Source: Tidjanibacter sp. (GTDB lineage Bacteria; Bacteroidota; Bacteroidia; Bacteroidales; Rikenellaceae). From it: a DNA stretch of 64,000 nucleotides. The notes beneath the pieces are model-generated. The model was not told the DNA's origin, ran no database searches, and saw nothing but the letters and a program-made list of their open reading frames with translations. A program made the position numbers and the translations under genes. Below are positions 779-59,281 of the stretch, one piece after another. How positions within the stretch are numbered: position 1 is the stretch's first letter; each line of letters starts with the position of its first letter. The stretch spans positions 1 to 64,000 of the forward strand of contig JAFTUI010000007.1 of assembly GCA_017466345.1 (NCBI GenBank). Direction: 5' to 3'.

Positions 779-922
779 TTAGGGAGGATAAGGACATTAA
801 GGACATTAAGGACATTAAGGACATTAAGGTCGTTAAAGCCCTTAAACTCCTTAAATCCCTATAAGCCCTATATGCCATATACGCCCTATAAGCCTTAGGA
901 CTATTGACGTTAGACGTTAGAC
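779..922. repeat. Family A repeat tract
   Basis: A run of short near-repeats: GGACATTAA four times, then GTTAAAGCCCTTAAACTCC-type units, then CCTATAAGCC/CCTATATGCC units, ending in the family A tail AGCCTTAGGACT followed by TTGACGTTAGACGTTAGAC (to 922). The same tail occurs at 5954-5997 and, in altered form, at 44220-44262 and 57290-57318. No coding potential was recognised. Confidence 0.7.
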
Positions 923-929
923 AAAACAC

Positions 930-5772: not shown

Positions 5773-5816
5773 AAAAAAGAGAGAGGGACTCAGTTTTTGA
5801 GTCCCTCTCTCTTTTT
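5773..5816 (+). terminator. Rho-independent terminator after the Omp85-type gene
   Basis: Long hairpin (arms GAGAGAGGGACTCA / TGAGTCCCTCTCTC) with A-tract before and T-tract after, so it could also work leftward. It starts 3 nt after the stop codon. Confidence 0.9.
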
Positions 5817-5997
5817 GTCTAACGTCTAAGGTCTAACGTCAATAGTCGCGGACACTTCGTGTCCGAGATGGGAGTTGTGAGAGGTATGGGAGTAATGGGA
5901 GTAATAAGAGTAATGTGAAATCTATCCCATTTCTCCCATAACTCCCATATCTCCTATAAGCCTTAGGACTTTTGACGTTAGACGTTAGACGTTGGAC
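5817..5997. repeat. Family A large palindrome
   Basis: Imperfect inverted repeat of about 31 nt: left arm 5817-5847 (built on GTCTAACGTC units) and right arm 5967-5997 (built on GACGTTAGAC units). Between them lie a perfect hairpin CGGACAC-ttc-GTGTCCG (5849-5865) and two facing tracts of ATGGGAGTTGTGAG-type and CCCATAACTCCCATAT-type units, which also pair. Almost the whole 181 nt can fold back on itself. Confidence 0.75.
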
Positions 5998-6164
5998 AAA
6001 AAAACGCAGAGAGCGGAGGAAATTTTGTGCCAAACAAGAAGGCGAGGCATCGGAACGATGCTTTTGTGAGGGTGGTACTCCCCACCCAAAAAACGCATAT
6101 AAGCGAGCGGATTTTAGGCGCACAAGAAAACCACCTTCGCAGTTTACTCGTCTGGAACGATAAA
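5998..6164. repeat. Truncated family D fragments
   Basis: From 6013 a 34-nt stretch is identical to the left side of family D copy D5 (51243-51276), but the expected apical loop and right arm are missing. A second half-copy carries TTCGCAGTTTACTCGTC (about 6134-6152), the family D apical left side, again without its partner. These look like decayed or rearranged family D copies. No gene recognised. Confidence 0.6.
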
Positions 6165-6281
6165 ATTCATAGAACGAGATGAATGCAAGGCATACAAGAA
6201 AGCGGGCTCCGCAGTTTACTAAGCGTAAATGAGGAAGCCCGCTTATCGCAGTATAACGCAGCAGTCGCTCGTTATATGAAT
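6165..6281. repeat. Family D nested palindrome, copy D1
   Basis: Outer stem ATTCATAGAACGAG (6165-6178) with CTCGTTATATGAAT (6268-6281); inner stem AAGCGGGCT (6200-6208) with AGCCCGCTT (6236-6244); apical TTTAC (6215-6219) with GTAAA (6225-6229). Linkers ATGCAAGGCATACAAGA and TATCGCAGTATAACGCAGCA are shared with other copies. It ends 3 nt from the ilvE stop codon. Confidence 0.85.
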
Positions 6282-6284
6282 TTT

Positions 6285-7304
6285 TTACAAGCCTTCAATA
6301 AGAGTAGTCCAGCCGTGCTTATCCTCCACACGACCATACTGAATATCCTGCAAGAGGTTGTAGAGTTTCACGCTCACAGGACCTGCCTCAGTACCATACT
6401 CGTAGTATTTCTCGGTCATAGGATCGTAGATGCGACCTACGGGCGAGATAACAGCAGCAGTACCGCAAGCACCGGTCTCCTCGAATGTCGCGAGTTCCTC
6501 AACGGGAATGGGGCGGTTCTCAACCGTCAATCCCAAGTCCTCAGCCAAGGTGCGGAGCGACATATTGGTAATAGAGGGAAGTACCGAAGTAGAGTCGGGA
6601 GTTACATACTTGCCGTCCTTAATACCGAAGAAGTTGGCAGCACCAAACTCGTCAATATATTTCTTCTCTTTGGGATCGAGGTAGAGACAGTTTGCAAAGC
6701 CAGCCTCGTGAGCACGCGAGCCCGAGCCGATAGATGCAGCATAGTTACCACCCACCTTGGTGTGACCCGTACCGTGAGGAGCAGCGCGGTCATAAAGACG
6801 CTCCAAAGTTACGGTGATAGGTTTGAAGCCCTCCTTGAAGTAGGGACCTACGGGAGTTACGAACACCACAAAGGTGTACTCGGTCGACTCCTTAACACCT
6901 ACCTGTGCGCCCGTACCAATCAGCAGAGGACGCAAGTAGAGCGAAGCACCTGTTCCGTAGGGAGGAATGTACTCGGCATTTGCCTTCACAGCCTTCACAC
7001 ACATCTCCTCGAAGAGTTCGATGCTGGGCACCTGCATACGCAGATACTCACCCGAACGCTGCATACGCTTAGCGTTCTCCTCCAAGCGGAAGAAGCGCAC
7101 CTTGCCATCAACGCCACGGAAAGCCTTCATACCCTCGAAGACCTCCTGACCATAGTGGAGGCAGGTAGCTGCCATATGGATAGGGAGGTACTCGCTGTCG
7201 CTTACCTCAACCTTACCCCAAGCACCGTTTTTCCATACGCAACGAGTGTTGTAGTCGGTTTTAACGTAACTAAAACCAAGTTCTTGCCATTTAATGTCTT
7301 TCAT
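6285..7304 (-). CDS. ilvE: Branched-chain amino acid aminotransferase
   Basis: A 339-residue class IV PLP-dependent aminotransferase that interconverts valine, leucine and isoleucine with their 2-oxo acids, using glutamate/2-oxoglutarate, in the cytoplasm. Visible family features: the LHYGQEVFEGMKAFR segment (49-63), the PLP lysine in GHTKVGGNYAAS (Lys183), EFGAANFF (218-225), TSVLPSITN and ETGACGTAAVISP near the C-terminus. Length and architecture fit the larger group II BCAT type. It is a single gene: repeats of families E (5' side) and D (3' side) border it, and the next gene metG reads the same way from further upstream. Confidence 0.93.
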   Translation of the reverse strand: MKDIKWQELGFSYVKTDYNTRCVWKNGAWGKVEVSDSEYLPIHMAATCLHYGQEVFEGMKAFRGVDGKVRFFRLEENAKRMQRSGEYLRMQVPSIELFEEMCVKAVKANAEYIPPYGTGASLYLRPLLIGTGAQVGVKESTEYTFVVFVTPVGPYFKEGFKPITVTLERLYDRAAPHGTGHTKVGGNYAASIGSGSRAHEAGFANCLYLDPKEKKYIDEFGAANFFGIKDGKYVTPDSTSVLPSITNMSLRTLAEDLGLTVENRPIPVEELATFEETGACGTAAVISPVGRIYDPMTEKYYEYGTEAGPVSVKLYNLLQDIQYGRVEDKHGWTTLIEGL

Positions 7305-12912: not shown

Positions 12913-12925
12913 GGAATTGAGAGTT

Positions 12926-13036
12926 GAGAATTGAGGCAAATGCGAGTAAGCGAGGGCAGAGGCTGCTTGCAGACTATGCCGAGCGGGAGCATTTTAGAGC
13001 AGCCGAAGGCTGGTCAATTGAGAATTGAGAATTCAA
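12926..13036 (+). repeat. Family C repeat, copy C1, with GAATTGA microrepeats
   Basis: Ninety-six nucleotides (12926-13021) are identical to copy C2 (44092-44187). Foldable parts are GGCA/TGCC enclosing CTGC-tt-GCAG and the short hairpin CAGCC-gaa-GGCTG after the constant GAGCATTTTAGAG-like segment. Short (GA)GAATTGA units flank both ends and begin right after the priA stop codon. Confidence 0.9.
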
Positions 13037-13884: not shown

Positions 13885-13955
13885 ACAAGGGTTGCAAGGG
13901 TTACAGGGGTTGCAAGGAGTATTCCCTGTTATCCTTGTTACCCCTGAAACCCTTG

Positions 13956-14173
13956 TATACGAGAAAGCAACTCCGCAGTTTGCTCAGCGCAAATGAGGAA
14001 GTTGCGATGCGCAGTTTGGTGCACAAAGCACCCACAAGGCACACTTGGGCGATTGCGATTTGTGAGGCGAGTAGTAGGCGCACAAGAAAACCACCTCCGC
14101 AGTTTACTCTTCGTAAATGAGGAGGTGGTTTATCGCAGTGCAACGACCTAATCGCCCACAAGGCGCGATCGCC
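13956..14173. repeat. Family D nested palindromes, tandem copies D2 and D3
   Basis: D2: stem GCAACT (13967-13972) with AGTTGC (14000-14005), apical TTTGC/GCAAA (13979-13983, 13989-13993). D3: stem AACCACCTCC (14089-14098) with GGAGGTGGTT (14121-14130), apical TTTAC/GTAAA (14103-14107, 14113-14117). An outer stem GGGCGATT (14047-14054) with AATCGCCC (14150-14157) encloses D3. A last small palindrome GGCGCGATCGCC (14162-14173) touches the GH57 stop codon. Confidence 0.8.
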
Positions 14174-15363
14174 TATTCACTCGCCAAGTCAAGCTCGTTG
14201 GCAAAGTCGGACAACACATTCATATAATTAATGAACGCATTGTATGCCGAATCGTAGGGGTTGAAGTAACTGTGCACATCACCGTCCGAGAACCACTTGG
14301 TAGCCATATAGTAGAAGTGGTCGGAAGCCTTCATAAAGTTCCAAACATAGTTGAAATCCTCGTTATCCAGGGCGCGAACTTTCTCCTGCAAGCCGTAAAG
14401 TTTGCCGAAAGCCTCATTCTGCAACTCGTTGCCGAGCCAAGCCGTCACATCCCTCTCCTCGTCTGCCCACGACATTGCGTGAGTGCAGTAGAGAACGCCC
14501 GTAGGTTGGTTTGCAGCAGCGGTTTCGGTTACGGTGCCAAACTTCAAAGCACCCGTAGCAAGCATAGCCTTAGGCAGTGCTGCCATAAAGTCGAAGATGC
14601 CACTCGAAGCCTTCTGGTGCTCGCCAAAGGTCTCGTAGTCCATAAAGAGGTTTACAACCTCTCCGGTGGTGTTCTCGTCAGCAATCCAGCCTGCATATTT
14701 CTCGGCTGTGAGGGGGTATTCGCCCCAACCCTGATTGGAGAAACGGAAGGCGATGTCGTCCGAGAGTTTGTAGTTACGCAACAAGATGCGCAACTTCTGG
14801 TCGAGGGCGTTGGCATAGACATAGTTGGGACTCTTCCAACCCAAGACGTGGCGTGCTCCTTCGGCGAGCATAGCCTTGAAGCCCATTGCTGCCACCTGCT
14901 CGCCAATCTGGTCGGAGTAGATAAGTTCGGTATTGCGGAACGAGGTGGGTGTATAGCCAAACTCGCTCTTCATAAGTTCAACGTGAGCCTCCACCTCGCT
15001 CTTGAACTCCTCGGGCGAGATGAGCGAAGAGAGCGAGTGGGAGTAGCTCTCTGCCAAAAACTCTACGCAACCCGTCTGGGCCAAGGCACGGAAACTCTCC
15101 AACACCTCGGGGGTGTAGCTGCGGAACTGCTCGATAGCCAAGCCCGAGATAGAGAAAGTCACTTTGAAAGCCCCCTCGTTCTCCTTGATGAGTCTCAGCA
15201 GGAGGTTGTTCATAGGCAAGTAGCACTCGGCAGCCACGCGCTGCATAATCGAGCGGTTGGCACTAACATCCAAGTAGTTGTGGTCCTTGCCCATATTAAA
15301 AAAGCGGTAAGTTTTAAGCCTCAGTGGCTGATGTACCTGAAAGTATAGACAAACTGTTTTCAT
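14173..15363 (-). CDS. GH57 family alpha-glucan-active glycoside hydrolase
   Basis: A 396-residue GH57 protein (alpha-amylase / 4-alpha-glucanotransferase / branching-type family), retaining mechanism, no signal peptide and therefore cytoplasmic. Family regions seen: HQPLR near the start (11-15), the catalytic nucleophile Glu146 in FRNTELIYSD, and the acid/base Asp242 in FMDYETFGEH. It is the last gene of a tight leftward glycogen operon: 5 nt separate it from the GT4 gene. In this context it probably trims or rearranges the alpha-1,4-glucan store. Exact specificity (amylase versus transferase) cannot be told by eye. Confidence 0.88.
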   Translation of the reverse strand: MKTVCLYFQVHQPLRLKTYRFFNMGKDHNYLDVSANRSIMQRVAAECYLPMNNLLLRLIKENEGAFKVTFSISGLAIEQFRSYTPEVLESFRALAQTGCVEFLAESYSHSLSSLISPEEFKSEVEAHVELMKSEFGYTPTSFRNTELIYSDQIGEQVAAMGFKAMLAEGARHVLGWKSPNYVYANALDQKLRILLRNYKLSDDIAFRFSNQGWGEYPLTAEKYAGWIADENTTGEVVNLFMDYETFGEHQKASSGIFDFMAALPKAMLATGALKFGTVTETAAANQPTGVLYCTHAMSWADEERDVTAWLGNELQNEAFGKLYGLQEKVRALDNEDFNYVWNFMKASDHFYYMATKWFSDGDVHSYFNPYDSAYNAFINYMNVLSDFANELDLASE

Positions 15364-18617: not shown

Positions 18618-19062
18618 ATCTCTCTCCTTATTCGTGTTTGTTTATTATTTTAGTTTATTGTTTCTTCTCCTTTGCTTTTTTCGCACCTTTTTACAAAAAG
18701 GTGCTACCAAAAACTTTTCGTGTACCAACCAATCGTGGTGCTACCTATCGTTTTGCTTCGGAGTGGCTTCGGAGTGGCTTCGGAGCATCCCACACCACCG
18801 AAAAAAGACTCCTCTCAAACTCTCCTTGTTATCCTTGTAATCCTTGTCACTCCTGTTACCCCTGTCACTCCCGCAAAAAGACTGACTACCGACCGCTAAT
18901 CACAGCCCCTCTATTTTAAGCGTTAGGGAAATCAGGGAATCTAAGGACTCCGCACACTGCGAACTCCTTAAATTCTCTAACCTCCCTAACCTCTTTAACC
19001 TTATTTATGCCCTAAAACTCCGTTTGGCGAGGCTATTGTGCCAATAGCCCGCCAGAGGAATT
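18618..19062. repeat. Repeat-filled gap with family E copy E2 and family A-like tract
   Basis: E2 (18680-18730) has hairpin GCACCTTTTTacAAAAAGGTGC and the constant TACCAAAAACTTTTCGTGTACC. It continues into three GGAGTGGCTTC-type units (18757-18790) that reappear inverted beside E3/E4. From 18827 a TTGTTATCC/CTTGTAATC-type tract is followed by TTAGGGAAAT and CTCCTTAAAT tracts like family A. No gene seen. If the glycogen genes form one transcript, this is an untranslated spacer. Confidence 0.65.
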
Positions 19063-23621: not shown

Positions 23622-24731
23622 TTAGTCGAAAAACTCGGCAATGACTCCATCTGACACCAGCCAATGCTCCTCGGCAAAGGCTACATTTTCGCCCTTTCGG
23701 AGCAGCACACCCGCCCCCACAAAGGGCTCGGCAATGCGCTCAAATTGCGCCCTTTTTGCTATACCAAACTGCTCTTCGAGAGCCACCAAATCGACACCCT
23801 CGGCAGTCCTCAGCGACACCATCACAATCTCCTCGTAACGCTCTTGTGTTGAGAGTATTTCGCTTTCGAGCGAGGAGCCTTCGAGGTACTTGTTTATGGA
23901 TGGCAGGTTCCAACTGCGGGTATTCTTACCATCGAAGGAGTGAGCCCCCGCACCAAGCCCCAAATAGGGCACCCCGTGCCAGTATGCAGAGTTGTGTCGC
24001 GAGCGGTAGTTTGGGCGGGCAAAATTGGATATTTCATAGTGTTCATAGCCCGCCTCGCGAAGCACCTCGCACAGCACCCCATACTCCTTGTCGGAGAGCT
24101 CTTCGGGGGCTGTCGTTATCCCCTTTTTGCCAAAGAGGGTGTTTTCTTCGATGGTGAGGTGGTAGGCGGAGATATGTTCAACGCCCAGAGCCACAGCCCG
24201 CTCCACATTCCCTCGCCAATCCTCCAAAGTGGCAGTAGGCAGACCATAAATAAGGTCTATGGAGATGTTGTCAAAACCCGCCTTGCGAGCCCTCTCCACA
24301 GCCCTCACAGCCTCCTCGGCAGTGTGTCGGCGGTTCATCATCAAAAGGTCTTCATCGCGGAACGATTGGATGCCGATACTAAGGCGATTGACACCCTGCG
24401 ATTTGAGCCCTGCAAGATACTCCTCCGTAAGGTCATCGGGGTTTGCCTCAACGGTTACTTCCTCCACCTCGGAGCAGTCGAAAACCTCCCTCGCACACGC
24501 TACAAGTGCTCCCAACTCTTCGGGGGTGCAGACTGTTGGCGTACCGCCACCGAAGTAGATGGTTTTGAGCACCGTACCCTCCAACATAGTCGCACGCTCG
24601 TGCATCTCGCGAGCCGTTGCAGCCAGCACCTCCGACTTGCGTGCGAGCGACATTGTTTTGTAGAAATCGCAATACCCGCAGAGCTTCTTGCAGAAAGGAA
24701 TGTGTATGTAGAGTGAAGAGGTCGTCATCAT
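23622..24731 (-). CDS. hemW: HemW-like radical SAM protein (coproporphyrinogen III oxidase-like)
   Basis: About 369 residues. Signature: YIHIPFCKKLCGYCDF with the CxxxCxxC cluster that binds a 4Fe-4S and S-adenosylmethionine. It is followed by YFGGGTPTVC, EANPDDLT, NRLSIGIQSF and IDLIYGLPTAT, all family hallmarks. HemW proteins resemble HemN but act as haem-binding chaperones or trafficking proteins; whether this one oxidises coproporphyrinogen is not known. Two adjacent Met codons (24731, 24728) give the usual family start; a longer frame from 24758 adds nine residues without family similarity. A simple (AATTCAAA) microrepeat lies just upstream. Confidence 0.88.
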   Translation of the reverse strand: MMTTSSLYIHIPFCKKLCGYCDFYKTMSLARKSEVLAATAREMHERATMLEGTVLKTIYFGGGTPTVCTPEELGALVACAREVFDCSEVEEVTVEANPDDLTEEYLAGLKSQGVNRLSIGIQSFRDEDLLMMNRRHTAEEAVRAVERARKAGFDNISIDLIYGLPTATLEDWRGNVERAVALGVEHISAYHLTIEENTLFGKKGITTAPEELSDKEYGVLCEVLREAGYEHYEISNFARPNYRSRHNSAYWHGVPYLGLGAGAHSFDGKNTRSWNLPSINKYLEGSSLESEILSTQERYEEIVMVSLRTAEGVDLVALEEQFGIAKRAQFERIAEPFVGAGVLLRKGENVAFAEEHWLVSDGVIAEFFD

Positions 24732-24847
24732 ACCCCAAAGGTCAGCAAAGAAATTCAAAATTCAAAATTCAACATTCAAAATTTTTGGGCGCCCTCCCAT
24801 ATCTCTCATATCTCTCATAAATCACAGCGGGCGGTAGACGCCCCCCC
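24732..24847. repeat. AATTCAAA microrepeat and short tracts upstream of hemW
   Basis: Three to four AATTCAAA/AACATTCAAA units (24753-24782), then a CTCCCATATCTCTCATATCTC tract of family A type, then a C-run. The microrepeat resembles the one at the apbE 3' end (63367-63391). Confidence 0.6.
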
Positions 24848-24967
24848 CAAGTGCATATCGCGGAGCAGATGCAAGGCTTGCGAAGAATGAGGATGCGGAG
24901 TTTGCTGGGCGCAAATGAGCAATCCGAGTCCGAGCGTAACGCAGCAGATGCCCGCGAGATGCACTTG
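24848..24967. repeat. Family D nested palindrome, copy D4 (divergent)
   Basis: Outer stem CAAGTGCAT (24848-24856) with ATGCACTTG (24959-24967) and CGCGG (24859-24863) with CCGCG (24952-24956), separated by a 2x2 internal loop. Linkers ATGCAAGGC and GCGTAACGCAGCAG match D1. The inner part keeps TTTGC/GCAAA, with a short GGAT/ATCC stem. Unlike the other copies it lies upstream of both flanking genes. Confidence 0.75.
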
Positions 24968-25095: not shown

Positions 25096-26703
25096 ATGGC
25101 TACTTTGGATTTGAAAAAGTACGGCATTGAGGGTGCCGAGATTATCTACAACCCCTCCTACGAGCAACTCTTTGAGGATGAGACCAATCCTAACCTCACC
25201 GGTTATGAGAAAGGTCAGCTCACCGAGACCGGTGCAGTGAACGTGATGACCGGTATCTACACCGGTCGCTCGCCCAAAGACAAATTCTTCGTAAAAGATG
25301 CCACTAGCGAGAACACCGTATGGTGGACCAGCGAGGAGTACAAAAACGACAACAAACCCGTTACTCCCGAGGCTTGGAAAGAGCTCAAAAAAATCGCTAC
25401 CAACCAGCTCAGCAACAAGAAACTCTACGTTATGGATACCTTCTGCGGTGCTAACGAGAACACTCGTTTGAAAATCCGTTTCGTAATGGAGGTTGCTTGG
25501 CAGGCTCACTTTGTGAAGAATATGTTCATCCGTCCTACCGAGGAGGAACTCGCAAACTATGGCGAGCCCGACTTCGTAGTGCTTACCGCTTCGAAAGCAA
25601 AGGTTGAGAACTACAAAGAACTCGGCTTGAACAGCGAGACCGCCGTTGTCTTCAACCTCACCGAAAAGATGCAGGTTATCATCAACACCTGGTATGGTGG
25701 CGAGATGAAGAAGGGTATGTTCTCCTATATGAACTACCTCCTGCCCTTGAAAGGTATCGCTTCGATGCACTGCTCGGCAAACACCAACGAGAAGGGCGAG
25801 ACCGCAATTTTCTTTGGTCTTTCGGGTACCGGCAAGACCACCCTTTCGACCGATCCCAAACGCCAACTCATCGGCGATGACGAGCACGGCTGGGATGACG
25901 AGGGTATCTTCAACTTCGAGGGTGGCTGCTATGCTAAGGTTATCAACCTCGACAAGGAGAGCGAGCCCGACATCTGGAACGCTATCCGCCGTGACGCTCT
26001 CTTGGAGAACGTAACCGTAGACGCTGAGGGTCACTGCGACTTTGCAGATAAGAGCGTAACCGAGAACACTCGTGTTTCGTACCCCATCTACCACATCAAC
26101 AACATCGTTAAGCCCATCTCGAAGGCTCCCGCCGCTAAGAAGGTTATCTTCCTCTCGGCTGACGCATTTGGTGTACTGCCTCCCGTGTCGATTCTGACTC
26201 CCGAGCAGACCAAATACTACTTCCTCTCGGGCTTCACCGCAAAACTTGCAGGTACCGAGCGTGGTATCACCGAGCCCACCCCCACCTTCTCGGCTTGCTT
26301 CGGCGCAGCATTCCTCTCGCTCCACCCCACCAAATATGGCGAGGAGCTCGTTAAGAGGATGCAGGCTTCGGGCGCAACCGCCTACCTTGTGAACACCGGT
26401 TGGAATGGTACCGGCAAACGTATCTCCATCAAGGATACCCGCGGTATTATTGACGCTATCTTGGACGGCTCTATCGACAAGGCTCCTACCAAGCAGATTC
26501 CCTACTTCAACTTCACCGTACCTACCGAGTTGCCCGGCGTAGACCCCGCAATTTTGGATCCCCGCGACACCTACGCAGCAGAGGCTGAGTGGACTGTTAA
26601 GGCTGAGGATTTGGCTGGCAGGTTCATCAAGAACTTCTCGAAGTTCACCACCAACGAAGAGGGTAAGGCTCTGGTTGCAGCAGGTCCCAAGTTGGAGAAA
26701 TAG
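25096..26703 (+). CDS. pckA: Phosphoenolpyruvate carboxykinase (ATP)
   Basis: A 535-residue ATP-type PEPCK, interconverting oxaloacetate plus ATP with PEP, CO2 and ADP. In fermentative Bacteroidales it mainly runs toward oxaloacetate on the way to succinate. Features: [10 protein letters not shown] (55-64), the P-loop GLSGTGKT (241-248), the metal/nucleotide motif LIGDDEHGW, and [17 protein letters not shown] near the C-terminus. Length and motifs are standard. Codon usage is strongly biased to C-ending codons, as expected for a highly expressed gene. It is a single gene with its own promoter and terminator. Confidence 0.97.
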
Positions 26704-26822: not shown

Positions 26823-26923
26823 CCCCCCACATTCACGGGTATTAAAAAAGATACCTGTGTTCTATTGCTCATCATTCCCCCTCGGAGCGCGGGTATTAAA
26901 AAAGATACCCGAGAATGTGGGGG
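26823..26923. repeat. Family F composite palindrome (two GGGTAT hairpins inside an outer stem)
   Basis: Outer stem CCCCCACATTC (26824-26834) with GAATGTGGGGG (26913-26923), 11 bp perfect. Inside are two copies of the 22-nt unit CGGGTAT-taaaaaag-ATACCCG (26836-26857, with one mismatch, and 26890-26911). Confidence 0.8.
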
Positions 26924-27335: not shown

Positions 27336-30152
27336 ATGAAAAAACTTTTCACACTCTTTGCTGTGCTTGCAATGTTCGCAATGGCGGGCTGCGAGTCGCT
27401 TGGTGATGACAACATCACCGAAGAGACCTATTCCATTAATGGTGCAATTCAAAAAGGTCCCTTTATTCAAGGCTCCTCTATCACCATTCAACCTCTCAAC
27501 AAACACCTTAAACCCAATGGCCAGATGTATACTACGCAGACTACCAACGATGCGGGTATGTTCGAGATGGACGGTGTTAACTCCAAGTATGCGGAGATTA
27601 TCGCAACGGGATATTATTTCGATGAGGTCGAGGGCAAAATATCTGCCGCCCCACTCACTCTTCGCTCCATTGCCGACCTTAAAGACGGAACGCAGACCAA
27701 TGTAAACCTCCTTACATCACTTACATACAACCGTATCAAAAACCTTGTGACAAACGAGGGCAAGGGCATTTCGGAGGCTCAGGAGCAAGCCGAGAAAGAA
27801 CTCTATACGGCATTGGGAATCCCCGCAGAGTTGCAGCCCAATGTTAGTTGTGGTGCTATGAACATTGCTAACAATGGCGAGGGCAATGGTCTGTTGTTGG
27901 CAATATCGGTCATATTACAACATGGTCGTAGTGTAGGAGAACTTTCGGAGTTTTTGGCACAACTAAGCACTGACCTTGCAGATGATGGTAATATATCAAC
28001 TCAACTATTAAACAAATTAACTATCATAAACAACAATGAGTCTATAGATGGTATAAGTAGTTATAGTCAATTGGCTGAGAGCGTGAGAGGGAATTTGTCA
28101 AATAGATACTACGAGCTCGGCATAACCATTTCTCTCCCCACAATCACCTCATATCTTGCACTATTTGATGATGTTGATAATAATGGTATTTGGGATGGTA
28201 AAGAATTTGCCATTCTTGAATATAATCACATTGATTTACCCTTGTCTGCAACGGAGTTTGATTTGCCACTTTTGTCTGACATCAACAAATGTGACATAAG
28301 TGTTGAGAAAGACATTGACTGGGTGTCGCTATCTATCAACGACAACACCTGTACGGTAAGTGTTTCTGCTAATTATACAAATAATGGTCGTAGCGCCACA
28401 ATTATCTTAAAAGATAAGAAAAGCGATGACGCTTTGTTGTTTTCAATTTTCCAAAGTTGCTCCCAAAGCATCATTACTTACACCTACAATCCATCGCAAT
28501 CTAATGGCAAAATCACAATAATTGCATCAGAAGAGAGTGTTGATCAGGTGGCATCAAATGGAAATGGCGCTATTTTCTTTGACAACTCGCCATCAATCAT
28601 TTATTCGGTTAGTGGCAAAATTACAACTATCTCTTTCCCCGAAAGTGTCGTTACCATCAAAAACAATGCATTTCAAGACTGCAAAAGTATCCAAAGCGTA
28701 AATTTAGGAATTAAGACAACGACTATCGAAGACAGTGCATTTTGTGACTGTTCAGAGCTTGAAAATATAAACATTCCCGAAAGCGTCACAACAATTGGCG
28801 ATAGGGCGTTCTATGGCTGTTCTAAACTCAAAAATATCACAATCCACGAGAGAATAACCTCAGTTGGTGCCAACGCACTTTATGGTTGTACAGGTACTCT
28901 CACCATTAATAGTAAAATCATCGAAACAGATTTCGATAGTTATAGCTCTCCATTTATCCACTTAACATTTTCTTCAATTGTCTTTGGAGAAAATATAACA
29001 AAAATAGGAGATATGGCGCTTTATGATTGTCCGAATCTTACAAGCATAACCATTCCCAATAGGGTTACATCGCTGGGAAAAGGTTTTTTGGCACTAACGG
29101 GTCTGACAAATATCACTATTCCAGAAAGTGTTTCTCATATTGGGGAGTCCGCATTCTCCAATTGTCAAAACCTCGAAAGGTTTGATAGCACATTTGCTAG
29201 TGATGATGGAAGATGTCTGATTGTTGATGGGATTCTTACATCCTTTGCTCCCGCAGGACTTACTGAATACACCATTCCCGATGGTATTACAGCAATTGGG
29301 GAAAGTGTGTTCACGGAAAATACACTTTCTCGAATTGACATTCCAAACGGCGTAACATCAATAGGCGCTTATGCTTTCTATTGCTGTAACAATCTTACAA
29401 GAATTGACATTCCTGCAAGTGTTACGCAAATTGGAGAAGGAGCTTTTATTGAATACGATGGCTTAATGAGAGAAATTCACATATCTGATTTGACAGCTTG
29501 GATAAACATCAACTTTTATTCAACTCCTTTTTATGCTCACAATTTGTATCTCAATGGCGAATTAGTTACTGAAGTGATTATCCCCGAAGGAATAACCACA
29601 ATTAAGGGTTTAGTATTTAGTTATTGCACAAATATCACAAAAATTTCTTGCCCCGATAGCGTCACTACGATTGGAGGTGGTGCATTCAATGGTTGTTCGA
29701 GCCTTGCAAGCATAACTATTCCCGGTGGTGTGACTGAGATTGGAGGTGGTGCATTCTATGGTTGTTCGAGCCTTGCAAGCATAACTATTCCCGGTGGTGT
29801 GACTGAGATTGGATGGGGCGCATTCATGTATTGTACAAGCCTTGAGAGCGTAACTATTAGCGAGGGTGTCACTTCGATTGGAGATTTGGTATTCGATGGT
29901 TGCACCTCGCTGACAAATATTACTATTCCTGATAGTGTTACTTCGATTGGAGAGTATGCATTCTATGGTTGTTCGAGCCTTGCAGAAGTTTATTGCAAGC
30001 CCACAACACCGCCAATAGGAGGTGATTTTATGTTCTACGACAATGCTTCGGGACGCAAGATTTATGTGCCCACCGAGAGCGTGGAAGAATATAAGGCTGC
30101 CGAGGGTTGGAACGAGTATGACTACTGCATTGTGGGCTACGACTTTGAGTAG
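27336..30152 (+). CDS. BspA-type leucine-rich-repeat lipoprotein
   Basis: A 938-residue surface lipoprotein. The signal peptide ends in a lipobox (AMAGC, Cys19). Residues ~30-340 form an N-terminal region rich in beta structure plus helices. A BACON-like segment near 325-375 (DWVSLSINDNTCTVSVSA) follows. The rest, from about 385, is a chain of BspA/LRR_5 repeats of 23 residues with the pattern SVTTIGDRAFYGCSKLKNITIP. Such proteins bind host or bacterial surface proteins or polymers; the ligand here is unknown. The gene is visibly more AT-rich than its neighbours, especially from ~27950. It ends with near-identical repeats (29670-29807). Confidence 0.85.
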   Translation: MKKLFTLFAVLAMFAMAGCESLGDDNITEETYSINGAIQKGPFIQGSSITIQPLNKHLKPNGQMYTTQTTNDAGMFEMDGVNSKYAEIIATGYYFDEVEGKISAAPLTLRSIADLKDGTQTNVNLLTSLTYNRIKNLVTNEGKGISEAQEQAEKELYTALGIPAELQPNVSCGAMNIANNGEGNGLLLAISVILQHGRSVGELSEFLAQLSTDLADDGNISTQLLNKLTIINNNESIDGISSYSQLAESVRGNLSNRYYELGITISLPTITSYLALFDDVDNNGIWDGKEFAILEYNHIDLPLSATEFDLPLLSDINKCDISVEKDIDWVSLSINDNTCTVSVSANYTNNGRSATIILKDKKSDDALLFSIFQSCSQSIITYTYNPSQSNGKITIIASEESVDQVASNGNGAIFFDNSPSIIYSVSGKITTISFPESVVTIKNNAFQDCKSIQSVNLGIKTTTIEDSAFCDCSELENINIPESVTTIGDRAFYGCSKLKNITIHERITSVGANALYGCTGTLTINSKIIETDFDSYSSPFIHLTFSSIVFGENITKIGDMALYDCPNLTSITIPNRVTSLGKGFLALTGLTNITIPESVSHIGESAFSNCQNLERFDSTFASDDGRCLIVDGILTSFAPAGLTEYTIPDGITAIGESVFTENTLSRIDIPNGVTSIGAYAFYCCNNLTRIDIPASVTQIGEGAFIEYDGLMREIHISDLTAWININFYSTPFYAHNLYLNGELVTEVIIPEGITTIKGLVFSYCTNITKISCPDSVTTIGGGAFNGCSSLASITIPGGVTEIGGGAFYGCSSLASITIPGGVTEIGWGAFMYCTSLESVTISEGVTSIGDLVFDGCTSLTNITIPDSVTSIGEYAFYGCSSLAEVYCKPTTPPIGGDFMFYDNASGRKIYVPTESVEEYKAAEGWNEYDYCIVGYDFE
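29670..29807 (+). repeat. Two 69-nt coding repeats in the LRR gene
   Basis: Units 29670-29738 and 29739-29807 differ at one base (CAATGG versus CTATGG). Each encodes one 23-residue LRR unit, pointing to recent duplication. Confidence 0.85.
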
Positions 30153-30289
30153 GCGTTAAGGTCATTAAGGGCGTTAAAGTCTTTAAGGTCATTAACGAAA
30201 TCGCTATTTTGCTCGCGGGTATCAAAAAAGATACCCGCGAGTATTTATAAGGCATATAGGGCGTATAAGGCGTATAAGCCTTATAGGCG
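30153..30289. repeat. Family A tract and family F hairpin
   Basis: GTTAAGGTCATTAAGGGCG-type units (30154-30193). Then a 30-nt perfect family F hairpin CTCGCGGGTAT-caaaaaag-ATACCCGCGAG (30212-30241). Then GGCATATAGG/GGCGTATAAGG units ending at family B. Confidence 0.75.
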
Positions 30290-30340
30290 ACAGACCTCTC
30301 CCCCGCTGCGCGGACCCTCCCCTAACTTAGGGGAGGGTTT
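30290..30340. repeat. Family B palindrome, copy B4
   Basis: Constant ACAGACCTCTCCC, hairpin CCGC-tgc-GCGG (30303-30313), constant ACCCTCCC, hairpin CTCCCCT-aactt-AGGGGAG. Confidence 0.8.
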
Positions 30341-30485: not shown

Positions 30486-30645
30486 TGCACTAAAAGTTTT
30501 TGGTTCCGCTTTTTACAAAAAGGCGTCAGAGTGACGCTTTTGTGCAGGTGGCTCCGAAGCCACTCCTAAGCAAAGCGGTAGGTAGTACCACAAAAGGTTG
30601 GTACACTAAAAGTTTTTGGTCCCGCTTTTTACAAAAAGCGGAGAA
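30486..30645 (-). repeat. Family E repeats, copies E3 and E4
   Basis: Two copies of CACTAAAAGTTTTTGGT (30488 on, and 30604 on), each followed by a T/A hairpin: CCGCTTTTTacAAAAAGGCG and CCGCTTTTTacAAAAAGCGG. Between them lie GGCGTCAGAGTGACGC and GGTGGCTCCGAAGCCACTCC palindromes. Compared with E1/E2 (GCACC/GGTGC) the stem closing pairs differ on both sides. E4 ends 11 nt from the CotH gene stop codon. Confidence 0.75.
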
Positions 30646-44073: not shown

Positions 44074-44187
44074 AATTGAGAATTGAGAATTGAGAATTGA
44101 GGCAAATGCGAGTAAGCGAGGGCAGAGGCTGCTTGCAGACTATGCCGAGCGGGAGCATTTTAGAGCAGCCGAAGGCTGGTCAATTGA
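44074..44187 (+). repeat. Family C repeat, copy C2, with GAATTGA microrepeats
   Basis: GAATTGA units (44074-44100) lead into the 96-nt core (44092-44187) identical to C1. A family A tail (AGCCTTAGGACTCTTGAC and later) follows at 44220-44262. The rest of the gap to the next start holds nothing recognised. Confidence 0.9.
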
Positions 44188-44315
44188 AAGCTGAAAGTTG
44201 AAACAATCCCATATCTCTCATATCTCTCATAAGCCTTAGGACTCTTGACATTAGAGATTAGACAAAACAACCATACAATTCACTTATACATTAACCTATT
44301 AAAACACAAAAGACT

Positions 44316-50647: not shown

Positions 50648-50894
50648 GGGGGGTGGTGGTGGATTGTGGGAGGGATGAGAGATATGAGAGGGATGAGAGA
50701 TATGGGAGTTATGGGAGTTATGGGAATAATTTTTGGTGAAAACAGTTGGGGGTTTGAGGGAAATGCGAGTCGGGCGAGAGCATTTTAGAGTAGCCGCAGG
50801 CTGGTCAGATATGAGTAACTGCTTGTGTCTCTCATTCTTCCTATCTTTCTTGCAGGGGTAACAAGGATAACAGGGATAACAGGAATTGCAAAAA
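50648..50894. repeat. Family A-type tracts and family C copy C4
   Basis: GGGATGAGAGATATGGGAG-type units (50674-50725), then a short family C copy (50759-50808) with AAATGCGAGT, GAGCATTTTAGAG and hairpin TAGCC-gca-GGCTG. A GGATAACAGGGATAACAGG tract follows at 50860-50885. Confidence 0.65.
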
Positions 50895-51003: not shown

Positions 51004-51146
51004 GCGGAGAACTATGTTCGGAGCGGGGTGGGTGGGGTGCGCGGAACGCGCACAAAAAAAAGAGCGGTAGATGCCAACCGCCCACATCACGGTGGTCGTG
51101 GCAAGACGGAGTTTTACAACCCCTATTCCCCACAGCCCCCTAACCT

Positions 51147-51172
51147 CACGGGTATTAAAAAAGATACCCGTG
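51147..51172. repeat. Family F hairpin, perfect copy
   Basis: CACGGGTAT-taaaaaag-ATACCCGTG, 9-bp stem around the same 8-nt loop seen at 26836, 26890 and 30212 (one loop base differs there). Confidence 0.8.
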
Positions 51173-51240
51173 AACAAGGGGGGGGGTACATTGTGTGTTG
51201 TGGTGGTCGCAAAGCTGCACTCGTGGGCAGTGAGTGAGTA

Positions 51241-51343
51241 TTGCGGAGGAAATTTTGTGCCAAACAAGAAGGCGAGTCCGCAGTTTACTCGGGCGTAAAT
51301 GAGGAACTCGCCTATCGCAGTGCGGTGCAAAATTTACCCGCAA
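51241..51343. repeat. Family D nested palindrome, copy D5
   Basis: Outer stem TTGCGG (51241-51246) with CCGCAA (51338-51343) and AAATTTTG (51250-51257) with CAAAATTT (51328-51335). Inner stem GGCGAGT (51271-51277) with ACTCGCC (51306-51312). Apical TTTAC/GTAAA (51284-51288, 51295-51299). It ends 3 nt from the GDPD stop codon. Confidence 0.85.
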
Positions 51344-51346
51344 GAC

Positions 51347-52105
51347 TCACTCACTATATAATGTCATCGCCACCTCAGGATAGTCGGTAGTAAGATAGTC
51401 GAGGGCGTGGGCGGCAAGCCACTTCATAGTGCCACGCTTATTGACTGTCCAAGCGTTAGACTCCAAGCCCAGGGCGTGGAGGCGTTTTATGAGGCGTGGT
51501 TGGAAGCGGTAGAGGAAGTGGTTATAGTCGGCACCCGCAAAGCCCAACTCCTGCAACTCGCTTGCCGAGAGTTCGCCATTGAGGTAGTAGACCTTTGCCT
51601 CGGGAGCAGCAGCGATGAACCCCAAGCACGCCTCCTTCGAGAAGCTGATGTAGTCGGTGCGGTCGGCAAGTCCCAGAGCCTCGACCATAGCCACCGAAGC
51701 CTGCACAGCCTTGCGCTCTTGCGTCTTATTGTTGTGGGGTTTGAGCTCGAAGACAAGGTGCAGCTCGGGGTACTCCTGCGCCACACGCAAAAAGTCCTCC
51801 AACAAGGGCAGAGGTTCGCCATTTTCGAGGGTGTGGTGTTGCAGTTCGGCGAGCGAGAGTTCCTCCACCCTGCGCCCCTCGAACTCGTCATCGTGGTAGA
51901 GCACAAGGTGGTCGTCTGCCGTAAGCCACACATCGAACTCCGAGCCCCAGCAGCCCAACTCGCCCGCCGCGCGGAGCGATGCTACGGAGTTTTGTGCCGC
52001 ACCCTCGGCACGCCAATAGCCCCTATGGGCAATAACTTTCGGTTGGGCAGATGCGCCCCACAGTGCAGATAAAATCAGGATAGCGGATAAAAAAATCTGT
52101 TTCAT
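51347..52105 (-). CDS. Glycerophosphodiester phosphodiesterase family protein
   Basis: A 252-residue exported protein (signal peptide 1-20, ending GASA) with a TIM-barrel GDPD domain. The HRGYW start of the domain (His27, Arg28) carries a catalytic His. GSEFDVWLTADDHLVLYHDDEF contains the metal-binding Glu/Asp pair and the second catalytic His, and VFELKPH closes the core. It hydrolyses glycerophosphodiesters to glycerol-3-phosphate and an alcohol, probably in the periplasm. The leftward -7 box TATATTTG (52133-52140) lies 28 nt upstream. Confidence 0.9.
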   Translation of the reverse strand: MKQIFLSAILILSALWGASAQPKVIAHRGYWRAEGAAQNSVASLRAAGELGCWGSEFDVWLTADDHLVLYHDDEFEGRRVEELSLAELQHHTLENGEPLPLLEDFLRVAQEYPELHLVFELKPHNNKTQERKAVQASVAMVEALGLADRTDYISFSKEACLGFIAAAPEAKVYYLNGELSASELQELGFAGADYNHFLYRFQPRLIKRLHALGLESNAWTVNKRGTMKWLAAHALDYLTTDYPEVAMTLYSE

Positions 52106-57150: not shown

Positions 57151-57410
57151 GCTAACCTGCCAAGAATGGACATCCACTACTCTCCTGAGAAGGGATGATA
57201 GATATGGGAGTTATGAGTCTTTTGGGAGATTAAGATCGTTAAAGCCCTTAAAGTCATTAAACACCTATAAGCCCTATATGCCCTATAAGCCTTATAAGCC
57301 TTATAAGCCTTAGGGCTATTGACGTGAGGCGAATAGTAGGCGCACAAGAAAATCCCCTCCGCAGGCGTCAGAGTGACACATTTGTGCAGGGAAGCCCCAC
57401 AACAGTAAAA
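57151..57410. repeat. Family A tract and E-like fragment
   Basis: GTTAAAGCCC, CCTATAAGCC and CTTATAAGCC units (57238-57314) end in TTAGGGCTATTGACG, a decayed family A tail. At 57363-57390 GGCGTCAGAGTGACAC and TTTGTGCAGG resemble the spacer of the E3/E4 composite. No gene recognised. Confidence 0.65.
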
Positions 57411-57412
57411 CG

Positions 57413-57522
57413 AATAGAACGCGATGGATGCTAGGCATACGAGAAAGCGGAGTCCGCAGTTTACTTGACGTAAATGAGGACTCCGCTTATCGAAGTATAA
57501 CGCCGCAGACGCGCGTTATATT
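57413..57522. repeat. Family D nested palindrome, copy D6
   Basis: Outer stem AATAGAACGCG (57413-57423) with CGCGTTATATT (57512-57522). Inner stem AAGCGGAGT (57445 region) with ACTCCGCTT (57479 region). Apical TTTAC/GTAAA. Linkers GATGCTAGGCATACGAGA and TATCGAAGTATAACGCCGCA match D1 with few changes. It ends 4 nt from the stop codon of the leftward TPR gene. Confidence 0.85.
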
Positions 57523-57526
57523 AGTT

Positions 57527-59281
57527 TTACATAGTCTGCATCAGCTCATAGAACTCAATATCATTCTCAGCCTTAGCCTTCAACTCAGGTTTGGCAGCGA
57601 TAGCAGCTTTGAGGTAAGCAGTAGCCTTCTCTACATCGCCCTCGCGGTTTGCGATGATAGCGCGAACGTAGTCAGCGTCAGCACCTTTAACCTCAGCGAT
57701 AGCAGCCTTAGCACCCTCGATGTTGTTGTCGCAAAGCTCAGCAACTGCAAGGTTGTAGCCATTGAGTTTGGTCTTAGCCTCCTGGTAGTTACCCTCAGCA
57801 AGTGCGAGAGCACCCTCGGTAGCCTTCACAGCCTCAGCGTCAGCGCTTGCGAGATACTTCTTAGCCTCTTCGAGGTCGCCCATTGCGAGCGAAACAGCTG
57901 CAAGGTTGCCAGCAACTGCGGGCTCAGCCTCAGCTTTTGCGAAAGCATCTTTTGCCTCAGCGAGTTTGCCAGAGAGAGCGTAGCAAACACCCAAGTTGTT
58001 GTATGCGCGAGCGTCACCATATTTGGTAGCAGCCTTCTCATAGATAGCGGTCTTCTCAGCAACATTGTTGGTGAGGGTTGCAGCGTGCAAGAGGTGCTCT
58101 ACATCGAGGCAGTCGCAACCTTTCTTAGCAGCCTCCAAGATCTCCTCATCGGTAAGACCTGCGTAGGTAGCCTCAACAGCGAAGCGGGTGCGGCGCAACT
58201 GGGGAAGAATCTCCTCTGCCAACACTTTGAATACTGCGCTCATATTCTGAATCTCCTGGTCGCGCTCAACGGGCGAAGAGTACATTGCAAGAACATTGAG
58301 GATGAGGTCTTTGTCCTCGATGTCGGAGTTCTCAACCAAAGTTTTGAAACCATCCCAGTCCTCGCCATAGGAAGCAATCTCGTAGTTCAAGCCCTCGATA
58401 CCTTTGAGCTCTTTCTGCATAGCCTTAGCACCAGTTTTACTACGCTGCTCGGAGAGTTTGTTGTTGAACTTCTCAGGACCATCGGGCGAAGCGTAACCCG
58501 AAGCGTATACATTGCCGAGGGTGGTACGCTCTGCGGCGCTGTTAGCAGCTACGAACTCTTTGAAGAGGGTGATCTGCTCAGCGGTGAGCTGGCTCTTGCG
58601 AACATTCGAAGAGTTGATGAGGTATTTGATCTCAGCCTCAGCATTCTTCACCGAGCTACGCTCGAAATTAGCCTCCGACATAGTGTAGTGACCGTTGTTA
58701 TCGGTAGTAACTTTACCCTCTACAACCTCAACAGCCTCAACAACCTCTACAGGAGCATCCTCAACAACTGCGGGAGTAGCACCAACGCCCTGTGCCAACG
58801 ACTGAACAGCGCTGATACCCTTAGCAACTGCGATGGTTGCCCAAGGAGTGAAGTCGGGCATCTCGCGGCACTCGTCAAAGCATTTAGCCTCTACGCGCAA
58901 CTCCAAAGTACCCACAACGCCTTTGTCGAAGGGGAAGGAGATGTGCTGGGTGTAGGAACCACCCTCGAAACGACTGATGGCGGTGTAGTTACCTACAACG
59001 TCCTCGCCCTGAACATATTTGGGAGCGCAAGCAATCTCCTCCGAACCGTAAACGAATACGGGAGTGATTTTCAAGATAGTCTCCTCGTCAAAGAACATCT
59101 CAGGGAAAGTAACAGTAATGTCAGCCTCAACGGTCGAACCTTTGAGGGTCAATACCTCTGGAACGCAAGTTACCTGAACCTGGTCCTGTTTTTTCTGCAT
59201 TTTCTCGTAGCACTCACCACAGCCAACCAACATAGTTGCAACCATCGAAAGTACCAGACTTACAGTAGCCAATCTTTTCAT
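57527..59281 (-). CDS. TPR lipoprotein with OmpA-like segment
   Basis: A 584-residue lipoprotein (lipobox at Cys21, LVGC). After the lipobox lies a Cys-containing beta-rich region (~22-150), a Val/Glu-rich linker (172-190), an OmpA-like segment (YASGYASPDGPEKFNNKLSEQRSKTGAKAM, which resembles the peptidoglycan-binding NxxLSxxRA motif), and a C-terminal run of TPR-like helices rich in Ala/Glu/Lys (~400-580). It may anchor an envelope complex to peptidoglycan. Leftward -7 box TATCTTTG (59400-59407) implies a leader of about 110 nt. Confidence 0.75.
   Translation of the reverse strand: MKRLATVSLVLSMVATMLVGCGECYEKMQKKQDQVQVTCVPEVLTLKGSTVEADITVTFPEMFFDEETILKITPVFVYGSEEIACAPKYVQGEDVVGNYTAISRFEGGSYTQHISFPFDKGVVGTLELRVEAKCFDECREMPDFTPWATIAVAKGISAVQSLAQGVGATPAVVEDAPVEVVEAVEVVEGKVTTDNNGHYTMSEANFERSSVKNAEAEIKYLINSSNVRKSQLTAEQITLFKEFVAANSAAERTTLGNVYASGYASPDGPEKFNNKLSEQRSKTGAKAMQKELKGIEGLNYEIASYGEDWDGFKTLVENSDIEDKDLILNVLAMYSSPVERDQEIQNMSAVFKVLAEEILPQLRRTRFAVEATYAGLTDEEILEAAKKGCDCLDVEHLLHAATLTNNVAEKTAIYEKAATKYGDARAYNNLGVCYALSGKLAEAKDAFAKAEAEPAVAGNLAAVSLAMGDLEEAKKYLASADAEAVKATEGALALAEGNYQEAKTKLNGYNLAVAELCDNNIEGAKAAIAEVKGADADYVRAIIANREGDVEKATAYLKAAIAAKPELKAKAENDIEFYELMQTM

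What the first reader, a model, noticed from the sequence alone, without database searches (positions are those of the whole stretch)
6165..6281. Family D: nested intergenic palindromes with conserved loops and covarying stems
At least six copies (6165-6281, two in 13956-14173, 24848-24967, 51241-51343, 57413-57522) share the apical module CCGCAGTTTAC...GTAAATGAGG and the linkers (GATGnATGCAAGGC; TATCGCAGTATAACGC). Their stems differ: inner stems AAGCGGGCT, GCAACT, AACCACCTCC, GGCGAGT and AAGCGGAGT, each with its exact complement on the other side. Outer stems change likewise (ATTCATAGAACGAG, AATAGAACGCG, CAAGTGCAT). Paired compensatory change across unrelated sites is strong evidence that the fold, in DNA or RNA, is selected. 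No transposase or known element was recognised.
Basis: seen in the sequence. Interest (0 to 1): 0.78.

Follow-up and report, generated by a model that had tools for sequence, protein, structure and literature searches.

The report
Cross-phylum relatives of ERIC repeat hairpins
The repeated hairpins in this gut bacterium belong to a family of tiny, probably mobile DNA elements in at least two bacterial phyla that appears to include the well-known ERIC repeats of E. coli; they share one folded core while their ends differ, which gives a new handle on where ERIC comes from.

Summary
In detail: six copies in the window, about 100 in the 1.8-Mb Rikenellaceae genome. The family is wider: a structural model (R1) built from 45 cores of Bacteroidota and Pseudomonadota, no ERIC among them, matches 47 of 395 Bacteroidota and 135 of 369 gammaproteobacterial genomes. 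A second model (R2, also without ERIC), run on four 50-kb stretches of E. coli K-12, one chosen for a known ERIC, gives two matches at E<=10, both ERIC elements (E=8.8e-8 and 0.3). Stems covary (512 double changes, 147 in shuffles) and the fold is strand-specific. Outer ends are not shared: relatives show target duplications of 4, about 5 or 8 bp, and in one lineage the ends of an IS5-family insertion sequence. So this is a superfamily of MITE-like elements with a conserved folded core and exchangeable ends. In the window's genome no duplication is demonstrable, but copies abut stop codons in one orientation (53 of 90; 2.2 expected) and are polarised along the chromosome. No RAYT transposase was found there. 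What reads the fold is unknown.

The parts
6160..6287 (+). Copy 1, complete element, core 6177-6268; its right end runs into the TAA stop codon (6285-6287) of the aminotransferase gene 6285-7304(-)
   Evidence: model R1 73.5 bits (not in the training set)
13960..14045 (+). Copy 2, partial: inner stem GCAACT/AGTTGC and apex present, left outer arm replaced by a 9-bp tandem repeat
   Evidence: model positions 29-64 only, 37.0 bits
14046..14175 (+). Copy 3, core 14065-14155, ends at the TAG stop codon of the GH57 gene 14173-15294(-)
   Evidence: 69.0 bits (in the training set)
24848..24967 (+). Copy 4, core 24863-24951, between divergent genes (radical SAM 23622-24758(-) and PEPCK 25096-26703(+)); not at a stop codon
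   Evidence: 84.8 bits (in the training set)
51241..51356 (+). Copy 5, variant type A core 51256-51327 without the AAGGC/AACGC loop; [quoted passage not shown]
   Evidence: 36.6 bits
57408..57529 (+). Copy 6, core 57422-57512, ends at the TAA stop codon of gene 57527-59245(-)
   Evidence: 66.5 bits (in the training set)
6000..6150 (+). Two half copies in tandem (left arms of types A and C) left of copy 1
   Evidence: by eye; (families D6, D15) for the second
57324..57400 (+). Half copy (type C left arm) joined to a GCGTCAGAGTGACAC hairpin
   Evidence: by eye; (family D15, 93% over 41 nt to copy 3)

Best explanation
The copies are the Rikenellaceae branch of a cross-phylum superfamily of miniature, MITE-like palindromes to which ERIC also belongs. 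Shown: the members aligned here share a core of about 89 nt that folds on one strand: an outer helix, an AAGGC/AACGC internal loop, variable inner stems, and a capped hairpin between G.AG and TGA. Stem sequence changes freely as long as both sides change together. Type A copies in the window's genome, such as 51241, deviate at the internal loop. Shown in some other lineages but not in the window's genome: the ends behave like insertion-sequence ends, with target-site duplications and, in one lineage, the same 16 terminal letters as a resident IS5-family element. Inferred: IS transposases move the elements by their ends, and the core is a conserved cargo that some DNA- or RNA-handling factor reads as a folded single strand. 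In the window's genome copies are kept (or inserted) immediately behind stop codons, so that the abutting gene's mRNA would carry the complement, the less stably folding strand; 45 of 101 copies have A-run/T-run ends like an intrinsic terminator. They are also polarised along the chromosome, which suggests a link with replication.
For: Copies: 97 in the genome, 0 for the reversed pattern. Covariation: A1 196 double-change cells against 55, A2 512 against 147, 0/500 shuffles each. Strand: RNAalifold -14.0 against -5.2 kcal/mol for the complement; 85 of 89 MFEs with DNA parameters; ERIC copies show the same strand preference, 6 of 6. Kinship with ERIC: best match in each of 6 enterobacterial loci with R1 and with R2, filters off; in 200 kb of K-12 R2 matches two places, both ERICs. 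Ends: 4-bp duplications in 9 of 11 anchored copies against 7.3% of swapped flanks (f19); 5 bp or more in 5 of 14 against 0 (G160) and 8 bp in 2 of 8 against 0 (G167). IS5-family IS with the same ends (NF033581 275.7 bits against cut-off 140). Gain, loss or exchange at one site: the ilvE 3' end carries an element of three types in 7 of 12 close genomes and a plain terminator in 5 of 12. Stop abutment 53 of 90 against 2.15 expected. Polarity 0.803 against a mean of 0.576 and a maximum of 0.716 in 1000 trials.
Against: In the window's own genome no terminal target duplication is demonstrable: 4-bp repeats are in excess (21 of 101 against 3.7%), but on inspection they are scattered, the commonest being palindromic pieces inside outer stems (GTGC, TGCA). 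No IS with matching ends was searched for there. The IS5-family element itself has no exact 4-bp repeat at its flanks (TTAA against TTAT). R1 with default filters missed an E. coli ERIC, R2 with default filters missed 2 of 6, and a plain pattern for the joint core fits 3 of 6 ERIC loci. The E. coli locus L376 and the K-12 match in L451 are the same ERIC in two strains. A window copy has no nucleotide-level match in the plasmid collection. Within Bacteroidota the model's hits are patchy: 41 of 47 genomes lie in one family, f19. Stop abutment is absent in Anaerophaga (G163) and Flavobacteriales (G160) copies. Stop codon choice does not differ from background (TAA or TAG to TGA 75:2 against 29:1), so a TA target cannot be inferred from it. 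Half copies and a hybrid with unlike halves persist. Sequences are related, so counts are not independent events, and A2 was fitted to the model.
Confidence: 0.78

Rival explanations
1. The elements are cis-acting 3'-UTR or terminator RNA structures. They are selected in the mRNA of the abutting gene and spread by gene conversion, not by transposition.
For: Exact abutment to stop codons, A-run/T-run ends in 45 of 101, elements in place of plain terminators at ilvE, mixing of outer and core types, no demonstrable target duplication in this genome.
Against: The better folding strand is the one opposite to that mRNA; copies in other genomes lie away from stop codons and show target duplications.
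Confidence: 0.12
2. Arm complementarity is kept by quasipalindrome (template-switch) repair without selection on the fold.
For: Arms within one genome are closely matched while their sequence varies.
Against: Internal loops and mismatches stay unpaired and conserved across phyla; the G.T over A.C bias is strand-specific; repair would tend to erase both. A hybrid copy with unlike halves persists (L048:4113).
Confidence: 0.08
3. REP/BIME-type elements moved by a RAYT (Y1 HUH) transposase acting on single-stranded DNA.
For: Strand-specific fold, high copy number, chromosome-scale polarity.
Against: No Y1_Tnp match in the genome, which is 95.6% complete; 4 of 151 family genomes have one while 55 have the pattern. 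Target duplications as seen in relatives are not made by Y1 enzymes (established knowledge, not a call).
Confidence: 0.05
4. The likeness to ERIC is convergence on a similar hairpin, and ERIC is unrelated.
For: No nucleotide-level match of a window copy where ERIC has hundreds; single ERIC copies score as low as 10.9 bits, no better than the best chance match.
Against: AAGGC, the GAG-hairpin-TGA apex and AACGCA in register over 89 positions; E=8.8e-8 in 200 kb; same better-folding strand; a Fukatsuia (Enterobacterales) plasmid copy with the non-ERIC apex.
Confidence: 0.1

Closest known systems
ERIC / IRU / RU-1 (enterobacterial repetitive intergenic consensus)
   Same: 89-position core with AAGGC loop, GAG-hairpin-TGA apex and AACGCA; total length about 120-127 bp; intergenic, multi-copy; same better-folding strand. 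In 3 of 6 fetched ERIC loci a stop codon lies just right of the element in the same orientation as here (L376, L380, L381). For Yersinia, overlap with stop codons in one orientation is recalled from De Gregorio 2005; PMC10969869 and PMC2229807 (passages) cite that work for ERICs at 3' ends and for an orientation effect
   Different: different sequence, ends, apical loop length (5 against 4 nt) and host phylum; the TA ends and duplication of ERIC (PMC2229807 table; recalled) are not demonstrable here; other relatives have duplications of 4, about 5 and 8 bp. ERIC locus L378 has its near stop codon on the other side
IS-derived MITEs (for example RUP with IS630-Spn1 ends, PMC2229807 passage)
   Same: ends shared with an IS5-family element in the f19 lineage, target duplications in relatives, too short to code for a transposase
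   Different: the interior is not decayed IS sequence but a structured core conserved between lineages with different ends
YPAL / RU-2 of Yersinia (PMC2229807 passage)
   Same: palindromic mobile repeat with target duplications of varying length (3-26 bp) next to dyad symmetry
   Different: its core sequence was not compared here
REP / BIME / REPIN with RAYT transposases
   Same: high-copy intergenic hairpins
   Different: much longer, nested fold; no RAYT found in the genome; target duplications in relatives

Membership tests
ERIC-type superfamily (shared core) | core structure AAGGC / GAG-hairpin-TGA / AACGCA in register | tested here: met
   Models built without ERIC have their best match on the ERIC in 6 of 6 loci (filters off) and two matches, both ERIC, in 200 kb of K-12; window copies 36.6-84.8 bits
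ERIC proper | nucleotide-level similarity to the ERIC consensus | tested here: not met
   window copy 1 has no blastn match in the plasmid collection, where an ERIC query finds 332 records
ERIC proper | insertion at TA with TA duplication | tested here: inconclusive
   TA on both sides in 12 of 45 A/T-run copies, as many as independent frequencies give (12.1; counted by hand from the table)
ERIC proper | host in Enterobacterales or Vibrionaceae | tested here: not met
   family f1 holds a contig of 333979 bases (L096) like SUZC01000001.1, titled Rikenellaceae
MITE | target-site duplication | tested here: inconclusive
   Seen in relatives: f19 9 of 11, G160 5 of 14, G167 2 of 8, G164 3 of 11 with 5 bp or more. 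Not demonstrable in G000, G163, G161, G168, G169; G165/166 2 of 6 with 4 bp only
MITE | ends shared with an autonomous IS | tested here: inconclusive
   Met for f19 with an IS5-family element; not tested for the window's genome
REP with RAYT | Y1_Tnp (PF01797) transposase in the genome | tested here: not met
   0 in G000; 4 of 151 family genomes
Known structured RNA | match to an Rfam 15 family at gathering score | tested here: not met
   the window gives only a 16S rRNA fragment
Intrinsic terminator | terminates transcription of the upstream gene | not testable with these tools
   position and T-run are suitable in part of the copies; no expression data

The most novel reading that the evidence does not exclude
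The core is an ancient, portable module, read as a folded single strand, that rides on the ends of whichever insertion sequence is active in each lineage. It is a hitch-hiker on transposons across at least two phyla; ERIC is one of its vehicles, and in Rikenellaceae its placement is tied to stop codons and to the direction of replication.
Probability: 0.4. Interest if true: 0.88.

Novelty: new variant of a known kind. Interest (0 to 1): 0.75.

Why it matters
ERIC repeats have long been used for typing (general knowledge), yet their mover and origin are open: PMC2759123 says it is not known how these sequences evolved, and PMC2229807 that there is no experimental support for transposases moving such elements (passages read). 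If ERIC's core is shared with many elements that have other ends in other lineages and another phylum, the question moves from the ends to the core. It also supplies lineages (f19 with its IS5-family partner, Flavobacteriales with clear duplications) in which movement and the role of the core can be tested directly, and the strand bias tells which strand to look at. In the listings of eight literature searches (five of them about ERIC) I saw no report of ERIC relatives outside Gammaproteobacteria. That library holds open-access papers only.

Tried and rejected
Tried without result. Paper searches with motif letters found nothing useful. Clustering of ORFs in 113 genome-contig loci gave no cluster with more than 5 loci; the two clusters that I looked at were ABC ATPases and dehydrogenases in unrelated places, the rest were not identified. 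GC skew did not orient contigs of the window's genome (mean -0.02, 41 of 101 positive). TA-target insertion as the cause of stop abutment could not be supported. The outer-by-core table left 56 of 101 copies with outer type 'other', so it supports mixing of modules only qualitatively. Window copy against plasmids and a gamma copy against phages: no match. Considered and rejected: RAYT/REP; an attC-like site (from knowledge, no model run); a known Rfam RNA. Unanchored TSD scripts gave 8 of 25 against 8% (f19) and 3 of 19 against 6.1% (gamma) with 4 bp or more: the gamma result is not convincing.

Selection effects. The 45 cores of A1 were found with a pattern that fixes AGGC, G.AGTTT, AAATGAG and AACG, so the invariance of those letters is by construction; stems were free, and the pattern allowed 71-100 nt where 87-93 were found. 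From 173 distinct cores 45 were kept after clustering. The f19 TSD count uses 11 of 28 loci, those in which both end motifs were recognised; the motifs were written after reading the sequences, a shift of one base was allowed, and L401 and L403 look like one site in two genomes. For ilvE a regex recognised 5 elements; two more (G080, G086) and all types were read by eye. In one search, 13 of the 55 genomes have a single match, and the reversed control gave single matches in 8 genomes, never two; 42 of 151 is the safer count. Model searches of genomes scored at most 11 candidates each, so copy numbers there are lower bounds. Of the four K-12 stretches one was chosen because it holds cusCF; the others were taken by round coordinates, though I vaguely recalled an ERIC near uvrD, which lies at the edge of one; the match there is at metR-metE.

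Full report
What is there. The apical pattern occurs 4 times in the window and never in 100 shuffles; it occurs 97 times in the 1.82-Mb genome and never when read backwards. From stretches round these I collected 101 distinct copies. They fall into several linker types (A to E) combined with several outer stems. Some are half copies, and at least one (L048:4113) joins a left half of one type to a right half of another.

Where they sit. In the orientation of the finding, the right-hand neighbour of 93 of 101 copies is a predicted gene on the opposite strand, and in 60 of these 93 its stop codon lies 59-68 nt from the centre of the apex. For the 90 copies with both neighbours in view, 53 abut such a stop codon against 2.15 expected from uniform placement in the same gaps. 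In tandem arrays only the proximal copy abuts the stop. At the ilvE gene 7 of 12 close genomes (89% or more identity) carry an element that begins at the stop codon, of three types (A in three, B in two, C in two, by eye), while 5 have an ordinary terminator some 15-30 nt behind it; in the 11 more distant genomes none was recognised within 230 nt. Copies are therefore gained, lost or exchanged at a fixed place. Element orientation agrees between copies 3-60 kb apart in 80% of pairs; gene strands agree in 50-56%, and giving each element the strand of a nearby gene yields 57.6% (maximum 71.6% in 1000 trials). I could not establish the direction of replication.

How wide the family is. The apical pattern occurs in 55 of 151 genomes of the family (42 with two or more). 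Of 19 such genomes, 18 hold the longer pattern with TAACG. From all loci I drew 173 distinct cores and kept 45 diverse ones, 87-93 nt long. Named plasmid copies were seen in Halomonas sp. PA16-9, Pseudomonas veronii and Candidatus Fukatsuia symbiotica (82.7, 74.7 and 31.6 bits with R2).

The fold. On the 45 cores 93.2% of cells pair (shuffles 72.7%; slid partners at most 41.4%), with 196 double-change cells against 55; the number of pairs with a double change, 15 against 13.1, is reached by 33 of 500 shuffles. On 93 model-aligned matches the figures are 96.1% and 512 against 147, and the apical helix, nearly invariant in the first set, now varies with every counted cell still paired. The fold is strand-specific. 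In mostly Watson-Crick pairs G.T outnumbers A.C 52 to 15 (A1) and 80 to 24 (A2); the consensus energy is -14.0 kcal/mol against -5.2 for the complement; single sequences fold better on the finding's strand in 70 of 89 (RNA) and 85 of 89 (DNA parameters). This speaks for one folded single strand, RNA or DNA, and against a symmetric cruciform. In the window's genome it is the strand opposite to the mRNA of the abutting gene.

Kinship with ERIC. I recalled that ERIC has a similar centre and fetched real copies. R1, built without ERIC, has its best match in each of six enterobacterial loci on the ERIC, in register (24.7, 24.2, 23.2, 17.4, 12.4 and 10.9 bits with filters off; the best other match is also 10.9). 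With default filters it missed the one locus tried. R2, built from A2, again without ERIC, gives 31.1 to 14.2 bits with filters off (best other 10.6); with default filters 4 of 6 are found. In 200 kb of E. coli K-12 R2 has two matches at E<=10: the metR-metE element (40.7 bits, E=8.8e-8) and the cusC-cusF element (16.1 bits, E=0.3), both ERICs by their central sequence. The stretch with cusCF was chosen for its ERIC, which is the same one as in L376; the others were taken by round coordinates. ERICs fold better on the same strand (6 of 6). In three of the six loci a stop codon lies just to the right, in the same orientation as here (L376, L380, L381), in one (L378) just to the left, and in two none is near.

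The ends. Outer ends differ between lineages. In Flavobacteriales G160 they are GAGACC...GGTCTC with direct repeats of 5-7 bp (5 of 14; 0 in swapped flanks), and the related G162 has two with 7 bp (of 14). In G167 they are GGCG...GCC with 8 bp (2 of 8; 0 in swapped flanks; a third by eye). In G164 three of 11 have 5 bp or more (control 3.7%; all). In f19 GGGC...GCCC has 4-bp repeats in 9 of 11 anchored copies (control 7.3%). In G221 of f19 an element of 1290 bp (L446:3497-4786) has at both ends the first 16 letters of a core element of the sister genome G342 (L447, the copy also held as L394); the G221 copy L406 agrees from the second letter. Its 349-aa protein is an IS5-family transposase (PF01609, PF05598; NF033581, 275.7 bits). 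R2 finds no core in it, and its own flanks show no exact duplication. In the window's genome no terminal duplication is demonstrable. ERIC itself is reported to duplicate TA (recalled; the table in PMC2229807 lists a duplication and TA at its termini).

Reading. The simplest account of a conserved core with unlike ends is a superfamily of MITE-like elements in which ends have been exchanged, or cores transferred, while the core stayed under selection as a folded single strand. That IS transposases use the ends is supported by duplications and by one IS partner in other lineages, and is inferred for the window's genome. Exact stop-codon abutment is seen in the window's genus and in two other Bacteroidota MAGs (6 of 6 copies at 61-64 nt in G165/G166, probably only four independent sites), not in all members. 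A possible reason is retention: in this orientation the mRNA carries the weaker-folding strand and keeps its stop codon, and the T-run can end the transcript. A targeting mechanism is equally open. What reads the fold is the open question.

Novelty. ERIC is known, so the kind is known. The cross-phylum superfamily, the exchangeable ends, the strand-specific selection and the stop-codon and chromosome polarity did not appear in the listings of the eight searches of an open-access library. From the literature I saw only search listings and passages of PMC10969869, PMC2229807 and PMC2759123; De Gregorio 2005, Wilson and Sharp 2006 and Zo 2011 were not read.

Noticed in passing
window 792-925, 5855-5990, 13923-13956, 18814-18874, 24795-24829, 30147-30297, 50671-50734, 57191-57331: Several families of 9-bp tandem repeats (TATAAGCCC, TCCCATATC, ATTAAGGAC, CCTTGTTAC types), mostly in intergenic regions, sometimes replacing one arm of the palindromes (13956, L023, L040).
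   Followed up: no
window 26823-26923, 30203-30249, 51136-51182: Four copies of a hairpin like CGGGTATTAAAAAAGATACCCG with varying flanks.
   Followed up: no
window 18689-18774 and 30552-30637; 12914-13036 and 44080-44202: Longer dispersed repeats (86 nt inverted, 83%; 123 nt direct, 94%) that were not compared with the family studied.
   Followed up: no
window 5812-5847, 5967-6002, 899-931 and flanks of several copies: GACGTTAGACGTTAGAC-type repeats lie directly beside several elements and continue their distal flank.
   Followed up: no
L346, L349, L358, L361, L366, L372 (genome G162): Small hairpins like CCCTGACGC..CGGTCAGGG are inserted in the arms of the core elements, in several copies in both arms.
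   Followed up: no
L325-L329, L336-L338, L345 (genomes G168, G169): Many copies lie at contig ends, so these repeats probably break metagenome assemblies and are under-counted.
   Followed up: no
L011:1763, L016:1501, window 57364-57391: Alternative right halves with a CGTCAGAGTGACG-like hairpin followed by TTTTGTG or similar recur in half copies.
   Followed up: no
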